Shown: piece by piece, positions 4,107 to 35,300 of the stretch
Layout of the letters: each line of letters opens with the position of its first letter
Position numbering within the stretch: the stretch's first letter is position 1
Assembly (NCBI RefSeq): GCF_003324185.1
Contig: NZ_PXUP01000016.1
Location: forward strand, 1 to 64,000
DNA from: Faecalibacterium prausnitzii
GTDB taxonomy: Bacteria; Bacillota; Clostridia; Oscillospirales; Ruminococcaceae
Direction of reading: 5' to 3'
Length of the DNA stretch: 64,000 bases
Position numbers and translations under genes: made by a program
Notes under the pieces: generated by a model
Told to the model about the DNA's origin: nothing
The model's input: the letters and a program-made list of their open reading frames with translations, nothing else
The model's database searches: none

Positions 4107-4898
4107 ATGGAGCTTTCGGCCTGTATCGTGGTGTATAACGGCGCCGGGGAGGCCATCAGGGCCGCCCAGACCGTGCTGGACTGCACCCGCCGCTACCCGC
4201 TCACGCTGTATCTTGTGGATAACGCCAGCCCGGACGGCAGCGGCCAGCAGCTGACCGCCGCCGCAAAGGACGGCACCCTGCGCACCGCCCCCGGGCAGAC
4301 GGTGCAGGTGCTCTGTCGGCTGGAAAACGGCGGCTTCGGCACCGGGCACAACACGGTGCTCTCGCTGCTGCACAGCCGGGTGCACTTTATCCTGAACCCG
4401 GATATCCAGCTGACGGCAGACACCCTGAGCGACCTTGCGGACTGGATGGCGGCGCACCCCGGCGTGGTGATGACCCGCCCGGGGCTGACCTTCCCGGACG
4501 GCAAGCCCCAGCAGCTGCCGCTGCGCCGGTGCAACGTGCGCGCCATGGTCTACCGTCAGCTGCCCTGTCTGCGCTTCTGGGCAAAGTGCAACGACCGCTA
4601 CCTGATGGCAGACAAAGACCTGACAAAGCCCACCGAGATCGAGTTCTGCACCGGCAGCTTTTCGGCGGTGGACACTGCCGCCTTCAAGGCCGTGGGCGGC
4701 TTTGACGAGGGGTACTTCATGTATGTGGAGGACGCCGACCTGACCCAGAAGATGCGCACCCGGGGCAAGGCGTATCTGGTGCCCCAGTACACCGCCATCC
4801 ACGCATGGCACCGTGCGGCGCACCGCAGCCTGAAGCCCTTTTTGTGGCAGCTGCGCAGCCTGCTGCGCTACTTTTCCAAGTGGGGCTTTGCGTGGTGA
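4107..4898 (+). CDS. GT2 glycosyltransferase, rhamnosyltransferase-like
   Basis: A 263-residue single-domain GT-A enzyme. The ATG at 4107 has AAAGGGGG just upstream; the in-frame ATG at 4047 lies inside the preceding gene and is less likely. The nucleotide-binding start SACIVVYNGAGEA is at the N-terminus, LYLVDNASPDGSG near residue 32, HFILNPDIQL near 93, and the acceptor-side signature GGFDEGYFMYVEDADL near 197 followed by HAWHRAAHRS. This pattern is shared with WbbL/RfbF-type rhamnosyltransferases. The gene follows the two-domain glycosyltransferase by 37 bases and ends at a hairpin, so the two form a small operon upstream of the rml genes. Confidence 0.82.
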   Translation: MELSACIVVYNGAGEAIRAAQTVLDCTRRYPLTLYLVDNASPDGSGQQLTAAAKDGTLRTAPGQTVQVLCRLENGGFGTGHNTVLSLLHSRVHFILNPDIQLTADTLSDLADWMAAHPGVVMTRPGLTFPDGKPQQLPLRRCNVRAMVYRQLPCLRFWAKCNDRYLMADKDLTKPTEIEFCTGSFSAVDTAAFKAVGGFDEGYFMYVEDADLTQKMRTRGKAYLVPQYTAIHAWHRAAHRSLKPFLWQLRSLLRYFSKWGFAW

Positions 4899-4929
4899 GC
4901 GGGGAAGAAAAATAGTGTTTTTGATTCGC

Positions 4930-4962
4930 AGAAAGCGGTGTGCCGACGGCACACCGCTTTCT
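4930..4962 (+). terminator. hairpin after the glycosyltransferase pair
   Basis: Perfect 15-base arms AGAAAGCGGTGTGCC and GGCACACCGCTTTCT with loop GAC, 31 bases after the stop codon. The T tract that follows (GTCGTTTCC) is weak, so this may act as a terminator or as a 3' stabilising hairpin. Confidence 0.65.
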
Positions 4963-4976
4963 GTCGTTTCCGCCTC

Positions 4977-7494: not shown

Positions 7495-8559
7495 ATGAAA
7501 ACCTATCTGATCACCGGCTGTGCCGGTTTTATCGGTTCCAACTTTGTGCACTATATGCTCAAAAAATACCCGGAGATCCTGCTGGTCAATCTGGATAAGC
7601 TGACCTACGCGGGCAATCTGGAAAACCTGAAGGACGTGGAGGGCGACCCCCGCCATGTGTTCGTGCAGGGCGACATCTGCGACAAGGAGCTGGTGGAGAG
7701 CCTGTTTGCAAAGTACGATTTCGACTACGTCATCAACTTTGCCGCCGAGAGCCATGTGGACCGCTCCATCAAGAACCCCGAGATCTTTGTGCAGAGCAAC
7801 GTGATGGGCACTGTCAACCTGCTGCAGCGCGCCAAGGAGGCATGGTACGACGCCGATGCCAAGACTTGGAAAGAGGGCAAGAAGTACCTGCAGGTGTCCA
7901 CCGATGAGGTGTACGGCGCTCTGGGTGCAGACGGCTTCTTTATGGAGACCACGCCCCTGTGCCCCCACAGCCCCTACTCCTCCTCCAAGGCCAGCGCCGA
8001 TATGTTCGTCATGGCCTTCCACGACACCTACGGCATGCCGGTGAACATTACTCGCTGCTCCAACAACTACGGCCCCTACCAGTTCCCGGAGAAGCTGATC
8101 CCCCTGATGATCAACAACGTCAAGCACCACAAGCAGCTGCCCGTCTACGGCGATGGTATGCAGATCCGCGACTGGCTGTATGTGGAGGATCACTGCAAGG
8201 CCATTGATATGGTGGCAAACGGCGGCAAGATCGGCGAGGTGTACAACGTGGGCGGCCACAACGAGCGCCCCAACATCTTCATCGTCAAGACCATCATCAA
8301 CCAGCTGCACGACCGTCTGCAGGACGAGGGCATCAGCGAGGAGCTGATCAAGCACGTTGCCGACCGTCTGGGTCACGACCGCCGCTACGGCATCGACCCC
8401 ACCAAGATCAAGAACGATCTGGGCTGGTACCCCGAAACTCCCTTCGAGAAGGGCATCGTGCTGACCATCGACTGGTACCTGAACCACGAGGAGTGGATGA
8501 ACCACGTCACCAGCGGCGACTACCAGAACTACTATCAGGATATGTACAAGAATAAGTAA
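7495..8559 (+). CDS. rmlB: dTDP-glucose 4,6-dehydratase RmlB
   Basis: A 354-residue extended-SDR enzyme that converts dTDP-glucose to dTDP-4-keto-6-deoxyglucose. TGCAGFIGSNF (NAD site) is at residues 7-17, AAESHVDRSI near 83, VSTDEVYG with the catalytic Asp-Glu near 133-140, and the catalytic YSSSK near 161. TRCSNNYGPYQFPEKLIP and RDWLYVEDHCKAI are further family signatures. The gene is followed by a strong terminator, so it closes the rml operon. The 3,5-epimerase gene rmlC, needed between RmlB and RmlD, is not in this window. Confidence 0.96.
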   Translation: MKTYLITGCAGFIGSNFVHYMLKKYPEILLVNLDKLTYAGNLENLKDVEGDPRHVFVQGDICDKELVESLFAKYDFDYVINFAAESHVDRSIKNPEIFVQSNVMGTVNLLQRAKEAWYDADAKTWKEGKKYLQVSTDEVYGALGADGFFMETTPLCPHSPYSSSKASADMFVMAFHDTYGMPVNITRCSNNYGPYQFPEKLIPLMINNVKHHKQLPVYGDGMQIRDWLYVEDHCKAIDMVANGGKIGEVYNVGGHNERPNIFIVKTIINQLHDRLQDEGISEELIKHVADRLGHDRRYGIDPTKIKNDLGWYPETPFEKGIVLTIDWYLNHEEWMNHVTSGDYQNYYQDMYKNK

Positions 8560-8574
8560 CAGCTTGTAAATTTA

Positions 8575-8612
8575 AACTCCCTCTGCATCTCACGGTGCAG
8601 GGGGAGTTTTTT
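8575..8612 (+). terminator. terminator of the rml operon
   Basis: Arms AACTCCCTCTGCA and TGCAGGGGGAGTT, a short loop and a run of six T, 16 bases after the rmlB stop. Confidence 0.88.
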
Positions 8613-8629
8613 GCTGTCATTCCCGTTAC

Positions 8630-8750
8630 GACCCCTCCCGTGAAAATGGAATAGCGGAGCGTCCGCAGACGCTCCGCTATTCCGAAATTATAAATATTCT
8701 TTCCGCTATTTATGCGCAGAGCAACGCGGCGCGCATTCTAAATCGTCCCG
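8630..8750 (-). repeat. dispersed two-hairpin 3' element, copy 1
   Basis: On the minus strand, downstream of the kinase-like gene and overlapping its last codons. A small hairpin (ATGCGC/GCGCAT) comes first, then a perfect 16-bp hairpin with arm GGAATAGCGGAGCGTC, loop TGCG and a following ATTTTCACGGGAGGGGTC. Copies 2 to 4 lie at 10410-10528, 28295-28395 and 35165-35276. All have the same order relative to the gene upstream of them. The T tract after the long stem suggests an intrinsic terminator. Confidence 0.85.
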
Positions 8751-9337
8751 CCTTGGGTGGTCTCCACCACAAAATCCGCGCTTTCGGCTATGCCGTACTG
8801 CGCAAAATAGCCCTCTTCCAGCGGCACCCACCGGGCGGCAAAATCCGCGTAGCGTGCGCCCTCCCGCGCCTGTAAGCGCCGGGTCTGCTCGGCCTTGGTG
8901 CAGGTCACAAACACCCGCAGCGTTTCGTAGGGGCGCAGCAGCGGGTGGTGGCTGTAACTGCCCTCTAAGATCACCAGCGGTTGTGCGGGCAGCTGTGCCG
9001 GGGGCAGATAAGCCCCCTCCCGACAGCTGTACGCCCGGTAGGCTACGGGCTGCCCCGCGTAGGCAGGGCGCAGGGCTTCGTCCCGCAGGCGGGTAAGGTC
9101 CATGTTGGCGCAGGGAGTGTGCGCCCAGTCCGGGCAGCGCCGGGCGGGCGGCAGGTAGAAATCATCCGTGCGCAGCAGGGTGCAGCCGGGCAGCTGCGCC
9201 GCCAGTGCGTTGGCAAGGGTGGTCTTGCCGCTGCCGCAGCGGCCGTCCAGCGCCAGCACCAGCGGGCGGGTGGGCGTTTGCGCCAGCGCGGCGCTCAGCA
9301 GCGCAGACAGGGTGGACGCGGTGATGGGTGTGGGCAT
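8738..9337 (-). CDS. uridine kinase-like P-loop kinase
   Basis: A 199-residue P-loop NTPase. The Walker A LALDGRCGSGKTT is near residues 27-39, LLRTDDFYLP near 55, NMDLTRLRDEALRP near 77, and the strand-plus-glycine LVILEGSYSHHP near 124. These match the uridine kinase/phosphoribulokinase superfamily, although the short length and divergent C-terminus leave the substrate open. The last codons and the TAG stop lie inside dispersed repeat element copy 1. The gene is divergent from the DUF3793 gene; an extended TGGTATAAT on the minus strand near 9393-9400 is a likely -10 element. Confidence 0.75.
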   Translation of the reverse strand: MPTPITASTLSALLSAALAQTPTRPLVLALDGRCGSGKTTLANALAAQLPGCTLLRTDDFYLPPARRCPDWAHTPCANMDLTRLRDEALRPAYAGQPVAYRAYSCREGAYLPPAQLPAQPLVILEGSYSHHPLLRPYETLRVFVTCTKAEQTRRLQAREGARYADFAARWVPLEEGYFAQYGIAESADFVVETTQGGTI

Positions 9338-9465
9338 GGGTTTGGCCTCCTTGGCAGGGTGCGCCCCAAGGGGCAGACCCGAGAATGCCCCAATTATACC
9401 ACAGCCGCCGCCGGAAGGGTAGCGCGGGCGTGGTTTGCCATAAATAACTTTTTTGCCGGAAAGGC

Positions 9466-9495
9466 TTGACAGGCCCCGCTGCGGTGTGGTACACT
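9466..9495 (+). promoter_or_regulatory. promoter upstream of the DUF3793 gene
   Basis: Consensus TTGACA (9466-9471), an 18-base spacer and TACACT (9490-9495). A GTTAG...CTAAC palindrome sits at the start site just downstream, so it can be blocked by a repressor. Confidence 0.75.
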
Positions 9496-9501
9496 ACTGG
9501 C

Positions 9502-9517
9502 GTTAGAAACAACTAAC
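9502..9517. promoter_or_regulatory. GTTAG-N6-CTAAC palindrome, putative DtxR-type operator
   Basis: GTTAGAAACAACTAAC lies right after the -10 of the DUF3793 promoter, where a bound repressor would block initiation. Related half-sites occur before feoA and before the DtxR-like gene at 13829. The assignment to iron control is inference from that pattern. Confidence 0.5.
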
Positions 9518-9531
9518 CATATGAGACCCCA

Positions 9532-9570
9532 CCGGCAGTGCCCGCAGCCCGGGCGTGCTGCTTCTTTTTT
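9532..9570 (+). terminator. intrinsic terminator inside the DUF3793 leader
   Basis: A hairpin with arms GCAGTGCCCG and CGGGCGTGCTGC is followed by TTCTTTTTT. It lies between the promoter and the DUF3793 start (9657). It is nested in a larger pairing CTAACC...ACCCCACC with GGGGTGG-A-GGTTAG (9513-9533 with 9571-9584). It could be an attenuator, or the 3' end of a small RNA of about 70 nt. Confidence 0.5.
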
Positions 9571-9656
9571 GGGGTGGAGGTTAGCTGCGTCTTACTTATA
9601 ACCGCCCGGCATCCGGGGCACACTGACCCCGACACCGCCGCCAAAGGAGAACCGCC

Positions 9657-10244
9657 ATGGAGCGTGATTTTGAGACCGTAATGATCGAACAATGTGCCCC
9701 GGTACTGGCGGGGCTGAAGCCTGCGGGGCTGTTCCGCTACGAAACGCGAAACCGTGCCGACCTTGCCCGGCGGGTGGCGGGCTGGAATGCCCAGCTGAAC
9801 CCCAAGGGCTTGCAGGTGCGGGTGCTGCGGGGGTGCATCGCTACCCGGCAGTATTTGGTGTACGTCTACCGCGCCGCCAAGCTGCAAACGGTGCTGGCAG
9901 ATGCCGCTGTGCGCGGCTTTTTAGCCCGGGAGGGCTACCGTCTGCCGGAGGATGCTGCGGACTGCAACGCGCTGCTGGACCAGCTCAGCCTGCGTCTGTG
10001 CTGCGCGGCGGAGGCGGCGGATTTCCCCCACGAGATCGGGGTATTTCTGGGCTATCCGCTGGAGGATGTGGTGGGCTTTATCCGGCACCGGGGCAAGTGC
10101 TTTACCTGCTGCGGGTGCTGGAAGTCCTATGGCGACCCCGCCGCCGCCCGGCAGCACTTTGACCAGCTTGCCAAGTGCACGGCGGTGTACTTGCGGCTGT
10201 TCCACAGCGGCACGCCCATTCTAAAGTTGGCAGTCGCCGCCTGA
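9657..10244 (+). CDS. DUF3793 family protein
   Basis: A 195-residue cytoplasmic protein with the ribosome-binding site AAAGGAG before the ATG. The conserved C-terminal block FPHEIGVFLGYPLEDVVGFI is near residues 122-141, followed by HRGKCFTCCGCWKSYGD with four Cys, which identifies DUF3793. The biochemical role of the family is unknown; in Clostridia it often lies near iron or flavodoxin genes. Here it is upstream of the feo operon and its promoter carries a palindrome like those at feoA, so iron-responsive expression is a fair inference. The CxxCCxC cluster could bind metal. Confidence 0.82.
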   Translation: MERDFETVMIEQCAPVLAGLKPAGLFRYETRNRADLARRVAGWNAQLNPKGLQVRVLRGCIATRQYLVYVYRAAKLQTVLADAAVRGFLAREGYRLPEDAADCNALLDQLSLRLCCAAEAADFPHEIGVFLGYPLEDVVGFIRHRGKCFTCCGCWKSYGDPAAARQHFDQLAKCTAVYLRLFHSGTPILKLAVAA

Positions 10245-10331
10245 AAAATTGATATTCTCTTTTCAAATACTCTCTTTTATCCTGGCAACTCTCCTATGCA
10301 TCCGACACAGGAGAGAGCGATCCTCCTTTTT

Positions 10332-10381
10332 ACACATGACCGCCCGGTGCAGTTTTGACCCCTGCGCCGGGCGGTCGTGTG
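10332..10381 (+). terminator. terminator-like hairpin after DUF3793
   Basis: Arms TGACCGCCCGG-GCAG and CTGC-CCGGGCGGTC flanked by ACACA/TGTGT, about 90 bases after the stop. The T tract after it is short (GTTTGGGG). Element copy 2 follows 29 bases later. Confidence 0.55.
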
Positions 10382-10409
10382 TTTGGGGGAATGCACTCCC
10401 GCGCGGGGT

Positions 10410-10528
10410 GGGACGATTTTGAATGCGCTCCGCGTTGCTCTGCGCATAAATAGCGGAAAGATTATTTTTATTTCGCAATTCTGGAAAATCTGCGGATTTT
10501 CCAGAATTGCCTTTTCACGGGAGGGGTC
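10410..10528 (+). repeat. dispersed two-hairpin 3' element, copy 2 (divergent stem)
   Basis: Plus-strand sense, downstream of DUF3793. The leading hairpin arms ATGCGC/GCGCAT flank the conserved core CCGCGTTGCTCT. The long hairpin again has 16-bp perfect arms and loop TGCG, but the arm is GCAATTCTGGAAAATC, almost entirely different from the other three copies. CTTTTCACGGGAGGGGTC follows, as in copy 1. Confidence 0.82.
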
Positions 10529-10588
10529 ATTCTCCGTCACCCTGCCCTATAAAATGGCAAAACGACCCCCTGAAAATGTAAACATTGG

Positions 10589-10689
10589 CTAACTTTAACT
10601 CAAGAAATAGAGTTAGTCATTGATGATTTTGATAAAAATGCAGGCCGGTTCCGGCATAAAATTTGTTTGTTCATATAAACTAACTATGA
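10589..10689. promoter_or_regulatory. cluster of TAAC/GTTA palindromes upstream of feoA
   Basis: TAACTC (10596-10601) and GAGTTA (10610-10615) form one inverted repeat inside GCTAAC...GTTAGTC. Further on, GTTTGTTCATATAAAC is followed by CTAACTATGAG near 10680. These resemble the palindromes at the promoters of DUF3793 and of the DtxR-like gene. They are candidate upstream operators of the feo operon. Confidence 0.4.
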
Positions 10690-13828: not shown

Positions 13829-14224
13829 ATGCAGCTGACCGCAGCGCATCTGCGCTATCTGCTGGCCATCTACGAGGTAAGCCGCACCCATCTGGACATC
13901 AGCTCCCGCAGCATTGCGGAAAAGCTGGGGGTGACAAAACCCTCGGTGGTGCGCATTTTGAACCTGCTCATGGAGCAGGGCATGATCGTAAAGGAGTACT
14001 ACGGTAAAATTTACCTGACCGACCGCGGCATCTGGGTGGCAAAGCGGGTGCAGCAGGAGCTGGACGCCATTCTGGCGCACTTCCCGCCGGTGAGCGGGGA
14101 GCTGACGGGCGAGGAGCAGTGGAACGCCGCCCTTGCCATGACGAGCGCTTTGCCCCAGCGCCTTTTTACCGCCGACTATGAGCGGATGGTGGAAGAGGAG
14201 GAGACTCCCTCCGTCAAAGCCTGA
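13829..14224 (+). CDS. DtxR/MntR-like metal-responsive regulator
   Basis: A 131-residue winged-helix protein from the ATG at 13829, which has AAAAAGGAG upstream; 16 extra residues from an ATG at 13781 are unlikely. TAAHLRYLLAIYEVSR, ISSRSIAEKLGVTKPSVVRI and GMIVKEYYGKIYLTDRG match the DNA-binding half of the DtxR/MntR iron-dependent repressor family. The protein is shorter than DtxR and ends with an acidic tail, so the metal-binding dimerisation domain is reduced. It follows the feo terminator and has its own palindrome. It is the obvious candidate to bind the GTTAG/CTAAC sites across this locus, by inference. Confidence 0.78.
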   Translation: MQLTAAHLRYLLAIYEVSRTHLDISSRSIAEKLGVTKPSVVRILNLLMEQGMIVKEYYGKIYLTDRGIWVAKRVQQELDAILAHFPPVSGELTGEEQWNAALAMTSALPQRLFTADYERMVEEEETPSVKA

Positions 14225-14466
14225 CAGGGCTTGACTGAGAGGGTTCTCCCCGGCAAGGGTGACTGTTCAAAAGTCCCCTATGACCCATAGAGTTTTGAAC
14301 AATGTGGACATTCAGCCCCGGAAATACAGCATTCCGTATCCACAATGTTCAACCTGAACGATGTGAATACTTGACGTAGGATAGCTTCTTTTTACACACT
14401 GATCAAATATAAAAAGTTGTAATAGAGTTACTCATTGTTCAGGCTGGAAATGCCCGGCAACATTGT
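14225..14466. repeat. cluster of TTGAACA/TGTTCA inverted repeats
   Basis: An intergenic stretch between convergent genes. TGTTCAAAA (near 14265) pairs with TTTTGAACA (near 14293). GAACAATGTGGA (near 14298) pairs with TCCACAATGTTC (near 14338). Two more ATTGTTCAG units lie near 14433 and 14463. The repeats adjoin the 3' end of an orphan replication-type ATPase gene. No gene is visible here. Confidence 0.6.
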
Positions 14467-15885
14467 TCAGCCGGATAGCTTTAATTGTTGATTCAGGTTT
14501 TTGACCTCCGCACATACAGTTGATTCAGTAAGCTCTGGTCTGTACCAGTAATTTTTCTGGTTGGGCTGCATCCCAACGCGCAGCACCTTCAACCCAAGTG
14601 CCACGCGGGCGCGGCGTATGGTGCTTACCGAGATATCCCGCTCGGCGCACAGGCGGTACACCTCGCCCGCCTCTACCCAGCCCACAAAGGACAGCTGCTT
14701 TTCCAGCGCCTCGATGGCGTTGGCAAGGGCGGCAGAGGGGCGGCCGTTGCCGGTGGCGGGGGTGCCCGCCTCCTGGATGATGGCGTCGGCGGTAAGGGTG
14801 CAGGGGCCGTCGTAGGCCACCGTGCCCTGCGGACAGATGCGGTAGCGCTGGCTTTCGCCGGGCTGGCCAAGGCTGTTTTTGGCGTGGGCCACCACCCGCA
14901 CCTCCGGGTGCTCCGGGTCCCGCCCGGCAATGAGGATGCTGCGGGCGGCGTTGCGGAAATCGCTGGAGCCAAGCAGACGGTCCAGCGCGCTGCATACCCC
15001 GGGGCCGGGCTTGCTCATATGGCTGATGAGCAGCACTGCCATGTCCAGCTCCTTGGCAAGGGCACCCAGATGGTCAAGCAAGGGGCGCACCTGCTCGGCG
15101 CGGTTCATCTGCACCCCCTGCCCCAGATAGCTCTGGATGGGGTCGAACACCAGCAGCGCCGGGCGGTACACCCGGCACAGAGCGGCAAGCTCCTCGTCGC
15201 CCATGCTGTAACTGGCACCATCCTGAAAATACAGCCGGTCAAGGTCTGCCCCCATGGCCTCGGCGCGGGGACGCAGCACCTTGTTGGGGTCGTTCTCGGC
15301 GGTAAGGTAGAGCACGGTGGCGGGGGGCTGCGGCGGGGTGTCCGGCGCAAAGGCTGCGCCCCGGGTAAGCCGGGCGCACACGTCCAGCGCAAGGCTGGTC
15401 TTGCCCGCAGCGGACACGCCGCCCAGAATGCTTACCATGCCCCGGGGCAGGTAGGGCTGCACCAGATAGGCGGCGCGCTCCGGCGCAAAGGCGCTGGCGG
15501 GACGGATGCGGAACCGCCCGTGCCCGGCCTTCTGTTTGGCTTCGGCTTCGGCGCGCTGCTCCTCGGCAAGGCCTGCCTGCACATACTGCTGGCGGGCGTT
15601 TGCCACAAAGCCCTCGATATCCTGCCCCATGCGCGCCCCGCAATCGGTGAACCAGCTCTCCACCCGGCCGGTGTCCCGCAGCTGACGGCTGTACAGCTGC
15701 CCCCGCAGCAGCCGCAGGGCTTCCTCGCGGCGGTCTTTGTCCAGCGTATACACCAGCGTGGCGGTGTAATCGCTGAGCAATTGGGCGTCCGGCGCGTGCT
15801 CCAGATGCTGGCACAGCTCCGTCCACACCTCGTGCTGGACGGCCTGCGCCTTGTCGTAGGCGGTACGGTACTTGTTTGCGTCCAT
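14467..15885 (-). CDS. RepA/DnaB-type RecA-fold ATPase with C-terminal winged helix
   Basis: A 472-residue protein from the ATG at 15885 (AAGGAGG 8 bases upstream). The N-terminal 130 residues are helical and charged. The core is a hexameric RecA-like ATPase: Walker A LGGVSAAGKTSLA near residue 152, TVLYLTAENDP near 190, Walker B PALLVFDPIQSYLG near 240, and a sensor strand MAVLLISHMSKPG near 275. The C-terminal 80 residues look like a winged helix (VYRLCAERDISVSTIRRARV). Such AAA_25/RepA proteins act as replicative helicases or loaders on plasmids and phages. No integrase or capsid gene is adjacent, so it may be a domesticated replication module. Inverted repeats lie just beyond its stop. 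Confidence 0.75.
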   Translation of the reverse strand: MDANKYRTAYDKAQAVQHEVWTELCQHLEHAPDAQLLSDYTATLVYTLDKDRREEALRLLRGQLYSRQLRDTGRVESWFTDCGARMGQDIEGFVANARQQYVQAGLAEEQRAEAEAKQKAGHGRFRIRPASAFAPERAAYLVQPYLPRGMVSILGGVSAAGKTSLALDVCARLTRGAAFAPDTPPQPPATVLYLTAENDPNKVLRPRAEAMGADLDRLYFQDGASYSMGDEELAALCRVYRPALLVFDPIQSYLGQGVQMNRAEQVRPLLDHLGALAKELDMAVLLISHMSKPGPGVCSALDRLLGSSDFRNAARSILIAGRDPEHPEVRVVAHAKNSLGQPGESQRYRICPQGTVAYDGPCTLTADAIIQEAGTPATGNGRPSAALANAIEALEKQLSFVGWVEAGEVYRLCAERDISVSTIRRARVALGLKVLRVGMQPNQKNYWYRPELTESTVCAEVKNLNQQLKLSG

Positions 15886-28282: not shown

Positions 28283-28294
28283 CGAGACTGGCTT

Positions 28295-28395
28295 TGCATG
28301 CGCGCCGCTGTGCTCTGCGCATCTTCAGAGGAATAATTATTTTTACTTCGGGATAGCGGAGCGTCTGCGGACGCTCCGCTATCCCATTTTTTTAT
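28295..28395 (+). repeat. dispersed two-hairpin 3' element, copy 3
   Basis: Downstream of the TetR gene, in its sense. Leading hairpin arms ATGCGC/GCGCAT, an AT-rich link, then 16-bp perfect arms with arm GGGATAGCGGAGCGTC and loop TGCG. ATTTTTTTATAGGGG follows, the longest T tract of the four copies. Confidence 0.85.
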
Positions 28396-35129: not shown

Positions 35130-35168
35130 AAAAGGCTCAGAAGCGCCGACAGGTGCTTCTGAGCCTTT
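35130..35168 (+). terminator. bidirectional terminator after the oxidoreductase pair
   Basis: Arms AAAAGGCTCAGAAGC and GCTTCTGAGCCTTTT with a 10-base loop. It directly adjoins the outer edge of element copy 4, which comes from the opposite direction. Confidence 0.9.
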
Positions 35169-35276
35169 TCCGTGAAAACGGGACAGCGGAGCGTCCGCAG
35201 ACGCTCCGCTGTCCCAAAATTATAAATGCTTTTCCGCTAAAAATGCCCAGAGCAACGCGGAGGGCATTCAAAACGT
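35165..35276 (-). repeat. dispersed two-hairpin 3' element, copy 4
   Basis: In minus sense, 24 bases after the threonine aldolase stop. The leading hairpin has arms ATGCCC/GGGCAT, a paired change from ATGCGC/GCGCAT in the other copies. The long hairpin has 16-bp perfect arms (GGGACAGCGGAGCGTC on the minus strand), loop TGCG and a following GTTTTCACGG. Confidence 0.86.
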
Positions 35277-35300
35277 TATACCCTCAAAAGGAGCGTAGGA

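What the first reader, a model, noticed from the sequence alone, without database searches (positions are those of the whole stretch)
8630..8750. Dispersed composite 3'-end element with covarying stems and a conserved UNCG-type loop
Four elements (8630-8750 minus, 10410-10528 plus, 28295-28395 plus, 35165-35276 minus) share one plan. A short hairpin ATGC(G/C)C...G(G/C)GCAT surrounds a conserved AGAGCAACGCGG-like core. An AT-rich link follows. Then comes a perfect hairpin of exactly 16+4+16 bases, and then a T tract, in three copies as TTTTCACGG. All four lie downstream of a gene in that gene's sense (kinase-like, DUF3793, TetR, threonine aldolase). In this sense the loop is always C(UGCG)G, a UNCG tetraloop. 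Stem changes are paired between copies: A-T to G-C and T-A to C-G in the long stem, and GC to CC/GG in the short stem of copy 4. Covariation plus constant orientation indicates selection for RNA structure, probably a mobile or duplicated terminator/3'-UTR element. I do not know a described family that matches.
Basis: partly seen in the sequence, partly recalled or inferred. Interest (0 to 1): 0.85.

Follow-up and report, generated by a model that had tools for sequence, protein, structure and literature searches.

The report
Mobile palindromic repeats in gut Faecalibacterium
The four look-alike hairpins are remains of a repeat scattered some 85 times through this gut bacterium's genome; it is present or absent at the same place in close relatives, pairs up head to head, and changes its perfect hairpin stems as whole blocks, so the matching changes that looked like RNA evolution are better explained at the DNA level.

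Summary
The four copies belong to a dispersed family: 85 half-elements of 55 bits or more in this 3.03 Mb genome. Four congeners have 68-99 model matches (capped search), two have 2-3, 18 none. Full units are head-to-head pairs bounded by a ~24-bp terminal inverted repeat (GGGACGATTTnnAATGnnCTCCGC): 20 convergent, 0 divergent, 0 tandem neighbours among 191 copies. 151 of 191, the window's four included, have no partner. Presence differs at orthologous sites of ~95% identical genomes. It is a MITE/REPIN-like palindromic repeat; no Rfam match and no transposase was found. The RNA argument fails: orientation is not constant (tandem gaps 55 sense, 42 antisense); paired changes come en bloc (19 of 62 orthologous pairs, at 13 sites, have a different stem); G-U intermediates are scarce (GT 11, AC 24), unlike terminator-like control hairpins of the same genomes (59, 22). 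Terminator activity remains plausible as a side property: 182 of 189 hairpins have at least 4 T in the next 8 bases on the sense side, 26 on the other, in units facing inward.

The parts
8726..8749 (-). copy 1: outer end (terminal inverted repeat); supplies the stop codon (8738-8740) of the kinase-like ORF
8712..8736 (-). copy 1: hairpin 1, ATGCGC...GCGCAT, loop holding CCGC
8648..8683 (-). copy 1: perfect 16+4+16 hairpin, TGCG loop
8640..8646 (-). copy 1: TTTTCAC tract
10410..10433 (+). copy 2: outer end; the orthologous gap in relative G006 holds no element
10423..10447 (+). copy 2: hairpin 1
10475..10510 (+). copy 2: perfect 16+4+16 hairpin (GCAATTCTGGAAAATC stem); the same site in G023 has a different stem (GGGATAGCGGAGCGCC)
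10512..10518 (+). copy 2: TTTTCAC tract
28285..28308 (+). copy 3: degenerate outer end
   Evidence: by comparison with the motif
28298..28322 (+). copy 3: hairpin 1
28350..28385 (+). copy 3: perfect 16+4+16 hairpin; G006 has here a bare hairpin of another sequence
28387..28393 (+). copy 3: T7 tract
35257..35280 (-). copy 4: outer end (degenerate start TATAACGTTTTG)
35243..35267 (-). copy 4: hairpin 1; in G023 and G006 a ~120-nt second repeat sits in this loop
35180..35215 (-). copy 4: perfect 16+4+16 hairpin; in G006 this stem lies on the opposite strand of the site, as half of a full unit
35172..35178 (-). copy 4: TTTTCAC tract

Best explanation
The four elements are solo halves of a non-autonomous, mobile, palindromic intergenic repeat (MITE/REPIN-like) that expanded in one clade of Faecalibacterium. 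Shown: a full unit is two halves facing inward, each made of terminal repeat, hairpin 1, AT-rich link, 16-bp hairpin (mostly TGCG loop) and mostly TTTTCAC. Shown: copies differ in presence between ~95% identical genomes, and solo halves outnumber pairs. Shown: stems differ between copies as blocks on both arms, also at orthologous sites. Inferred: stems are changed and kept perfect at the DNA level, by exchange between copies, inversion between the two halves of a unit, and fold-back (hairpin-templated) correction, not by stepwise compensatory RNA evolution. Inferred: because each half presents its T tract inward, a unit can terminate transcription entering from either side, which would make it tolerable at gene 3' ends, where it accumulates. 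The mobilising enzyme is unknown and may be lost or act in trans.
For: Copy number and clade: 85 copies of 55 bits or more in the own genome; at E<=1e-8 G000 91, G003 97, G006 99, G010 68, G023 96 (at most 100 candidates scored per genome, so lower bounds), G007 2, G021 3, and 0 in the other 18 of 25 genomes of the genus and in 16 of other families; 0 in the other 196 genomes of an order-wide sample (20 candidates scored each). Head-to-head pairs 20, divergent 0, tandem 0 under 450 nt; 40 of 191 copies have a partner; 18 distinct end-to-end units of 209-583 bp. Polymorphism: G006 has nothing at the copy 2 site; a 323-bp stretch holding one unit in G006, with orthologues in G023 and G010, is missing from G000 between adjacent bases C6:77816 and 77817; a unit in G000 is missing in G023, which has 6 bases there. 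En bloc stems: of 62 orthologous pairs, 5'-arm identity is 16/16 in 34, 15/16 in 9 and 12/16 or less in 19, with none at 13-14. The cleanest are 6 pairs at 4 sites whose 5' part is still 92-96% alike; at one of these, three genomes have three different stems. Hairpin 1: both arms changed in 10, one arm in 3, same in 20 of 33 measurable pairs. 98 distinct arms, 130 of 191 stems perfect; inner module CGGAGCGTC occurs with 22 outer modules. Wobble deficit against control, p=6e-5.
Against: No target-site duplication could be read and no parent transposase was found. Y1 transposase is absent from copy-rich G006 and present in copy-free G012. At the site missing in G000 the more distant G010 is filled, so that case is most simply a loss, not a gain. 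3 of the 19 differing pairs (2 sites) compare opposite halves of a unit, the other stem being in the partner half, and several others compare a degenerate copy (5' part only 48-61% alike). Stems identical to a swapped one are often not found elsewhere among the copies held, so the source of new stems is unproven. The T-tract asymmetry (182 against 26 of 189) and 86 of 129 copies starting within 40 nt of a sense gene's stop leave room for selection as terminators. One of the 9 pairs that differ at one base is compensated (L249/L281).
Confidence: 0.75

Rival explanations
1. They are RNA 3'-end elements (intrinsic terminators with a 5' pseudoknot-like domain) kept by selection for RNA structure.
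For: Strong hairpin (mean -29.2 kcal/mol over up to 40 own copies) with a short T tract on one side; TGCG loop in 179 of 189; 74 of 182 placed copies in convergent gaps and 86 of 129 close to a stop; only 18 of 129 copies have another terminator-like hairpin in the same gap by a strict scan that also skipped TGCG/CGCA hairpins downstream, and only 8 of 191 have one just upstream. Stem type GGAGCGYC leans to sense, 27 against 10 in tandem gaps.
Against: GT 11 against AC 24 in stems, where terminator-like control hairpins show 59 against 22. Tandem gaps 55 sense, 42 antisense. Stem changes en bloc. At sites 1 and 2 a separate terminator-like hairpin is seen by eye in the window and in relatives without the element. 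The pseudoknot pairing CCGC/GCGG shows no compensatory change.
Confidence: 0.15
2. A REPIN/BIME proper, mobilised by a REP-associated tyrosine transposase acting on single-stranded hairpins.
For: Inverted doublets, solo remnants and intergenic spread, as in REPINs (passages of PMC3116915). Other repeats are nested at hairpin loops.
Against: Ends show GGGACGATTT, not GTAG; units are far larger than REPs; Y1_Tnp is absent from G006, which holds 99 model matches.
Confidence: 0.07
3. A static, ancestral set of structured intergenic spacers inherited vertically, with no mobility; differences are only deletions.
For: Some empty sites are losses: in the case missing from G000 the more distant G010 is filled; G006 carries a 127-bp internal deletion of one unit.
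Against: 68-99 matches per genome in one clade and 0 in 18 of 25 genomes of the genus; shared end motif; other repeats inside copies.
Confidence: 0.03

Closest known systems
REPIN / BIME (REP doublets; PMC3116915, abstract and passages seen)
   Same: Intergenic, high copy number, replicating unit an inverted doublet, singlets as remnants
   Different: No GTAG tag, no linked RAYT, each half ~100-150 nt with two hairpins, 16-bp mostly perfect stems that differ between copies
CGTC-tagged REPs (PMC3733652, abstract and passages seen)
   Same: CGTC occurs in the end motif on the reverse strand; hairpin 1 begins with A-T pairs; head-to-head dimers, often of unlike partners; no dedicated transposase
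   Different: CGTC is about 9 nt from the hairpin instead of adjacent; stems are 6 and 16 bp, not 8-9; 0 hits for Firmicutes, Clostridi- or Faecalibacterium in that paper's text
Bacterial MITEs (general knowledge; review PMC10969869 seen in a search listing only)
   Same: Terminal inverted repeats, 209-583 bp, no ORF above 94 aa in the 18 units, presence/absence polymorphism
   Different: No target-site duplication seen, no parent IS found, inner hairpin stems shuffled as cassettes
Insertion sequences that target REP palindromes (PMC1525189, abstract read)
   Same: Foreign DNA inserted at a fixed point of a palindromic repeat
   Different: Here the inserts are themselves short repeats (~120 nt and ~100 nt), after CCGC in the loop of hairpin 1 and near the apex of the long hairpin

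Membership tests
REPIN (RAYT-mobilised) | inverted doublets as the unit | tested here: met
   20 convergent pairs, 0 divergent, 0 tandem among 191 copies
REPIN (RAYT-mobilised) | GTAG tetranucleotide at the hairpin foot | tested here: not met
   end consensus GGGACGATTTnnAATG; the GTAG definition is from PMC3733652 passages
REPIN (RAYT-mobilised) | linked tyrosine transposase | tested here: not met
   Y1_Tnp in 9 of 27 genomes of the genus, own included; none in G006 with 99 matches, one in G012 with 0
CGTC REP super-family | CGTC tag next to an 8-9 bp stem with 4-5 nt loop | tested here: not met
   CGTC about 9 nt away; stems 6 and 16 bp (definition from passages)
MITE | terminal inverted repeats, no transposase gene | tested here: met
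   18 end-to-end units of 209-583 bp, longest complete ORF 94 aa; two longer stretches between convergent end motifs held no evident transposase
MITE | presence/absence at orthologous sites | tested here: met
MITE | target-site duplication | tested here: inconclusive
   filled/empty comparisons showed no clear duplication
MITE | parent transposon with the same ends | tested here: inconclusive
   none in the stretches read; only Y1_Tnp was searched as a family
Intrinsic terminator | stable hairpin followed by a T tract on the sense side | tested here: met
   182 of 189 with at least 4 T of 8
Intrinsic terminator | G-U tolerance on the sense strand, as in terminator-like hairpins of the same genomes | tested here: not met
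   11 GT / 24 AC against 59 / 22
Intrinsic terminator | transcripts end there | not testable with these tools
   no RNA data
Any Rfam 15 family | match at gathering score | tested here: not met
   only two tRNAs in the window; best sub-threshold cyano-S1 at E 0.06 in the stretch 8500-10650

The most novel reading that the evidence does not exclude
A new class of mobile palindromic repeat in which each unit carries two inward-facing terminators, so that it shuts off transcription from either side wherever it lands, and whose perfect hairpin stems are exchanged or inverted as modules and re-perfected by fold-back DNA repair. The family would then keep terminator function while diversifying its stems without compensatory mutation, giving false RNA covariation signals.
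Probability: 0.3. Interest if true: 0.65.

Novelty: new variant of a known kind. Interest (0 to 1): 0.5.

Why it matters
It shows how strong-looking covariation in a bacterial repeat can arise from DNA-level change of palindromes, a trap for structured-RNA discovery; the missing-wobble test with a same-genome control is a simple guard. It also describes a hypervariable repeat family, not found described in the searches made, in Faecalibacterium, an abundant human gut commensal (recalled), which makes the origin of REP-like elements without a known transposase testable in strain collections.

Tried and rejected
Rfam: no family. The pseudoknot idea (loop CCGC with downstream GCGG): both motifs present in 115 of 142 measurable copies but without compensatory change, and CCGC is also part of the terminal repeat, so it is left unproven. 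Y1 transposase as mobiliser: rejected by distribution. Two longer stretches between convergent end motifs hold a Na/Pi-cotransporter-like and other ordinary-looking genes (named from their sequence by recall; no family search was run on them). Target-site duplication: not resolved. Literature: Faecalibacterium searches listed no paper that looked like a description; only listings and abstract starts were seen, one search showed 12 of 791 and 15 of 17, and the library is open-access only. Searches were general searches. Plasmids: no match. Phages: 10 records, all named only Bacteriophage sp. from human faecal samples; the two opened were unannotated UNVERIFIED scaffolds, perhaps bacterial fragments, not followed further. 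The IMG/VR stem hit lacks the rest of the element in the 300 bases read and is taken as chance.

Limits of the counts. The 191 copies are 85 of G000 (the rows at 55 bits or more; weaker rows, many of them reverse-strand echoes of the palindromes, were dropped), 56 of G006, 48 of G023 and 2 of G003, from stretches around the best-scoring places and the window's synteny (rows under 55 bits dropped), so they are neither complete nor independent, and orthologous sites count more than once. 2 of 191 had no measurable long stem; 9 of 191 lacked a flanking gene in the held stretch. Hairpin 1 was measurable by the search pattern in 142 of 191. The control hairpins are predicted, not proven terminators, and were collected by a different scan. 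Genes were called by a simple codon-usage script, not a standard annotator.

Full report
What is there. The four elements were read directly. In sense each has an end motif GGGACGATTTnnAATGnnCkCCGC (degenerate in copies 3 and 4), hairpin 1 (ATGnnC...GnnCAT), an AT-rich link, a perfect 16+4+16 hairpin with TGCG loop, and TTTTCAC (T7 in copy 3). No Rfam family fits.

A family. The apex pattern alone gives 22 places in the own genome. A covariance model from 19 copies gives 148 matches at E<=0.01, of which I kept the 85 with 55 bits or more, none overlapping another. At E<=1e-8 the relatives have G003 97, G006 99, G010 68, G023 96 (own genome 91; at most 100 candidates were scored per genome), G007 2, G021 3 and 0 in the other 18 of 25 genomes of the genus; 0 in 16 genomes of other families; 0 in the other 196 genomes of an order-wide sample, at least one of them a congener (20 candidates scored each). 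The copy-rich genomes are also those most similar to the window at two loci. A scan of named genomes with the exact end motif gave 53 stretches, 50 in Faecalibacterium and 3 scattered, presumably chance. The window's own strain was not named.

Architecture. Among 191 copies in four genomes, 20 pairs face each other within 450 nt, none face apart and none are tandem; 151 of 191 have no such partner. Scanning for end motifs with up to 3 mismatches gives 18 distinct units of 209-583 bp, with no complete ORF above 94 aa. The two halves carry stems of different type in 18 of the 20 pairs. Two other short repeats are nested in copies: a ~120-nt repeat after CCGC in the loop of hairpin 1 in 12 of 191 copies, 9 of which keep the 3' arm of the hairpin behind it, and a ~100-nt repeat near the apex of the long hairpin. 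Copy 4's site has the first insert in G023 and G006 but not in the window.

Mobility or at least polymorphism. G006 has no element at the copy 2 site: window 10381-10529 is missing between adjacent G006 bases. The copy 1 site holds a different module behind the same end motif in G006 and G023, and a ~30-bp remnant in G003. A full unit in G006 is missing, with some tens of flanking bases, in G003 and G010. A 323-bp stretch holding a unit of G006, also present in G023 and G010, is missing in G000; as G010 is the more distant genome this is most simply a loss. A unit of G000 is missing in G023. Another unit lacks 127 internal bp in G006. No clear target-site duplication could be read.

The covariation. 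In the first 19 copies 15 of 27 pairs had double changes and none varied on one side only. RNA selection normally leaves G-U intermediates. Over 189 measurable long stems there are 2925 Watson-Crick pairs, 11 GT, 24 AC and 64 other; 130 of 191 copies are perfect and there are 98 distinct arms. As control, 111 terminator-like hairpins outside the family in the same loci have GT 59, AC 22 and 21 perfect; the difference has Fisher p=6e-5. Control and family were collected by different searches, but the family search allows G-U, which works against the result. At orthologous sites (62 pairs, upstream flanks 91-99% alike), the 5' arm is identical in 34, differs at one base in 9 and is 12/16 or less alike in 19 pairs at 13 sites, with nothing at 13-14. 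Of these 19, 3 pairs at 2 sites compare opposite halves of a unit: the other stem lies in the partner half, so the unit was inverted or lost different halves. Others compare a degenerate copy. The cleanest are 6 pairs at 4 sites whose preceding part is still 92-96% alike; one of these sites has three different stems in three genomes, two of them perfect. In 8 of the 9 pairs with one changed base the change is uncompensated in one member. For hairpin 1, of 33 measurable orthologous pairs 20 are alike, 10 differ on both arms and 3 on one. One inner module occurs with 22 outer modules among 166 stems with at least 15 of 16 pairs. In the own genome one copy has its loop turned round (CGCA) with the same stem as its orthologues. 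Stems thus change as blocks on both arms. Exchange between copies, inversion within units and hairpin-templated correction are my inference; the source of many stems was not found among the copies held.

Orientation and gene context. Of 182 placed copies, 74 lie in convergent gaps, 55 sense and 42 antisense in tandem gaps (p=0.22) and 11 in divergent gaps. In the own genome 36 of 84 are convergent against 26 of 163 gaps in stretches taken as a whole (p=4.5e-9), and 6 are divergent (p=0.03). A direct test within those stretches alone is not significant (p=0.15). When the upstream gene is sense, 86 of 129 copies start within 40 nt of its stop. The family prefers gene 3' ends but not one orientation; the GGAGCGYC stem type leans to sense (27 against 10).

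Terminator function. The sense side has a mean longest T run of 4.26, the other side 1.75. A strict scan finds another terminator-like hairpin in 18 of 129 gaps; it skips TGCG/CGCA hairpins downstream and also misses the separate terminator-like hairpins visible by eye at sites 1 and 2. Because halves face inward, a full unit presents a terminator to transcription from either flank. This is plausible and untested.

Comparison. REPINs are inverted doublets with singlet remnants (PMC3116915, abstract and passages); this family shares that layout but lacks GTAG and a linked RAYT. CGTC-tagged REPs (PMC3733652, abstract and passages) share a CGTC and the absence of a transposase but have 8-9 bp stems next to the tag. 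Insertion into REPs is known for several IS (PMC1525189, abstract). I file it as MITE/REPIN-like, not as a proven member of either. In the open-access searches with Faecalibacterium (listings only) I saw no description.

Noticed in passing
L085, L088, L092, L094, L096, L097, L101, L102, L131, L135, L245, L263: A ~120-nt GC-rich repeat (near its start TTACGGGTTGCGG, end GTCGTCGTCGTTGC) is inserted after CCGC of hairpin 1 in 12 of 191 copies; in 3 of them the 3' arm of the hairpin is gone.
   Followed up: partly
L085:590-690, L007 reverse half, G023 L277:42-: A ~100-nt repeat (GCAGCAATGAAAGCCCCAGTGGGGC...) is inserted near the apex of the long hairpin.
   Followed up: partly
G006 C1:703400-704620, G023 C1:794590-795290, G003 C44:48800-49180: Long mosaic of other dispersed repeats (such as CTCCCCCGGGGGGAGCTGTCGCGCAGCGACTGAGGGG and GGAGAAGCGAAAAAAGCGTTAAAGCG) next to the same end motif at window sites 1 and 2.
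   Followed up: no
window 14195-14560: Intergenic site filled differently in each relative: a full unit in G006, other repeats in the window and G023, nothing in G003.
   Followed up: partly
window 8738-8740: Copy 1 supplies the stop codon of the kinase-like ORF 8738-9337.
   Followed up: no
window 4851-4971: A weak plus-strand model match (28.8 bits) over a terminator-like hairpin; the gap at 4896-4975 carries a ~1 kb insert in G023.
   Followed up: no
C4:78972-79071 (own genome) against L132 and L136: The same stem with its loop inverted (CGCA against TGCG) at an orthologous site, a sign of in-place inversion at the palindrome.
   Followed up: partly
window 35172-35280 against G006 L131:7990-8236; C76:28806 against G023 L263:2802-3042: At two sites the stem kept in one genome sits on the opposite strand, in the partner half of a full unit, in another: unit inversion or loss of different halves.
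   Followed up: partly
copies with stems of type GTTTGTCGC (three genomes): This stem type lies in divergent gaps in 6 of 20 placed copies, against 5 of 162 of the other types.
   Followed up: no
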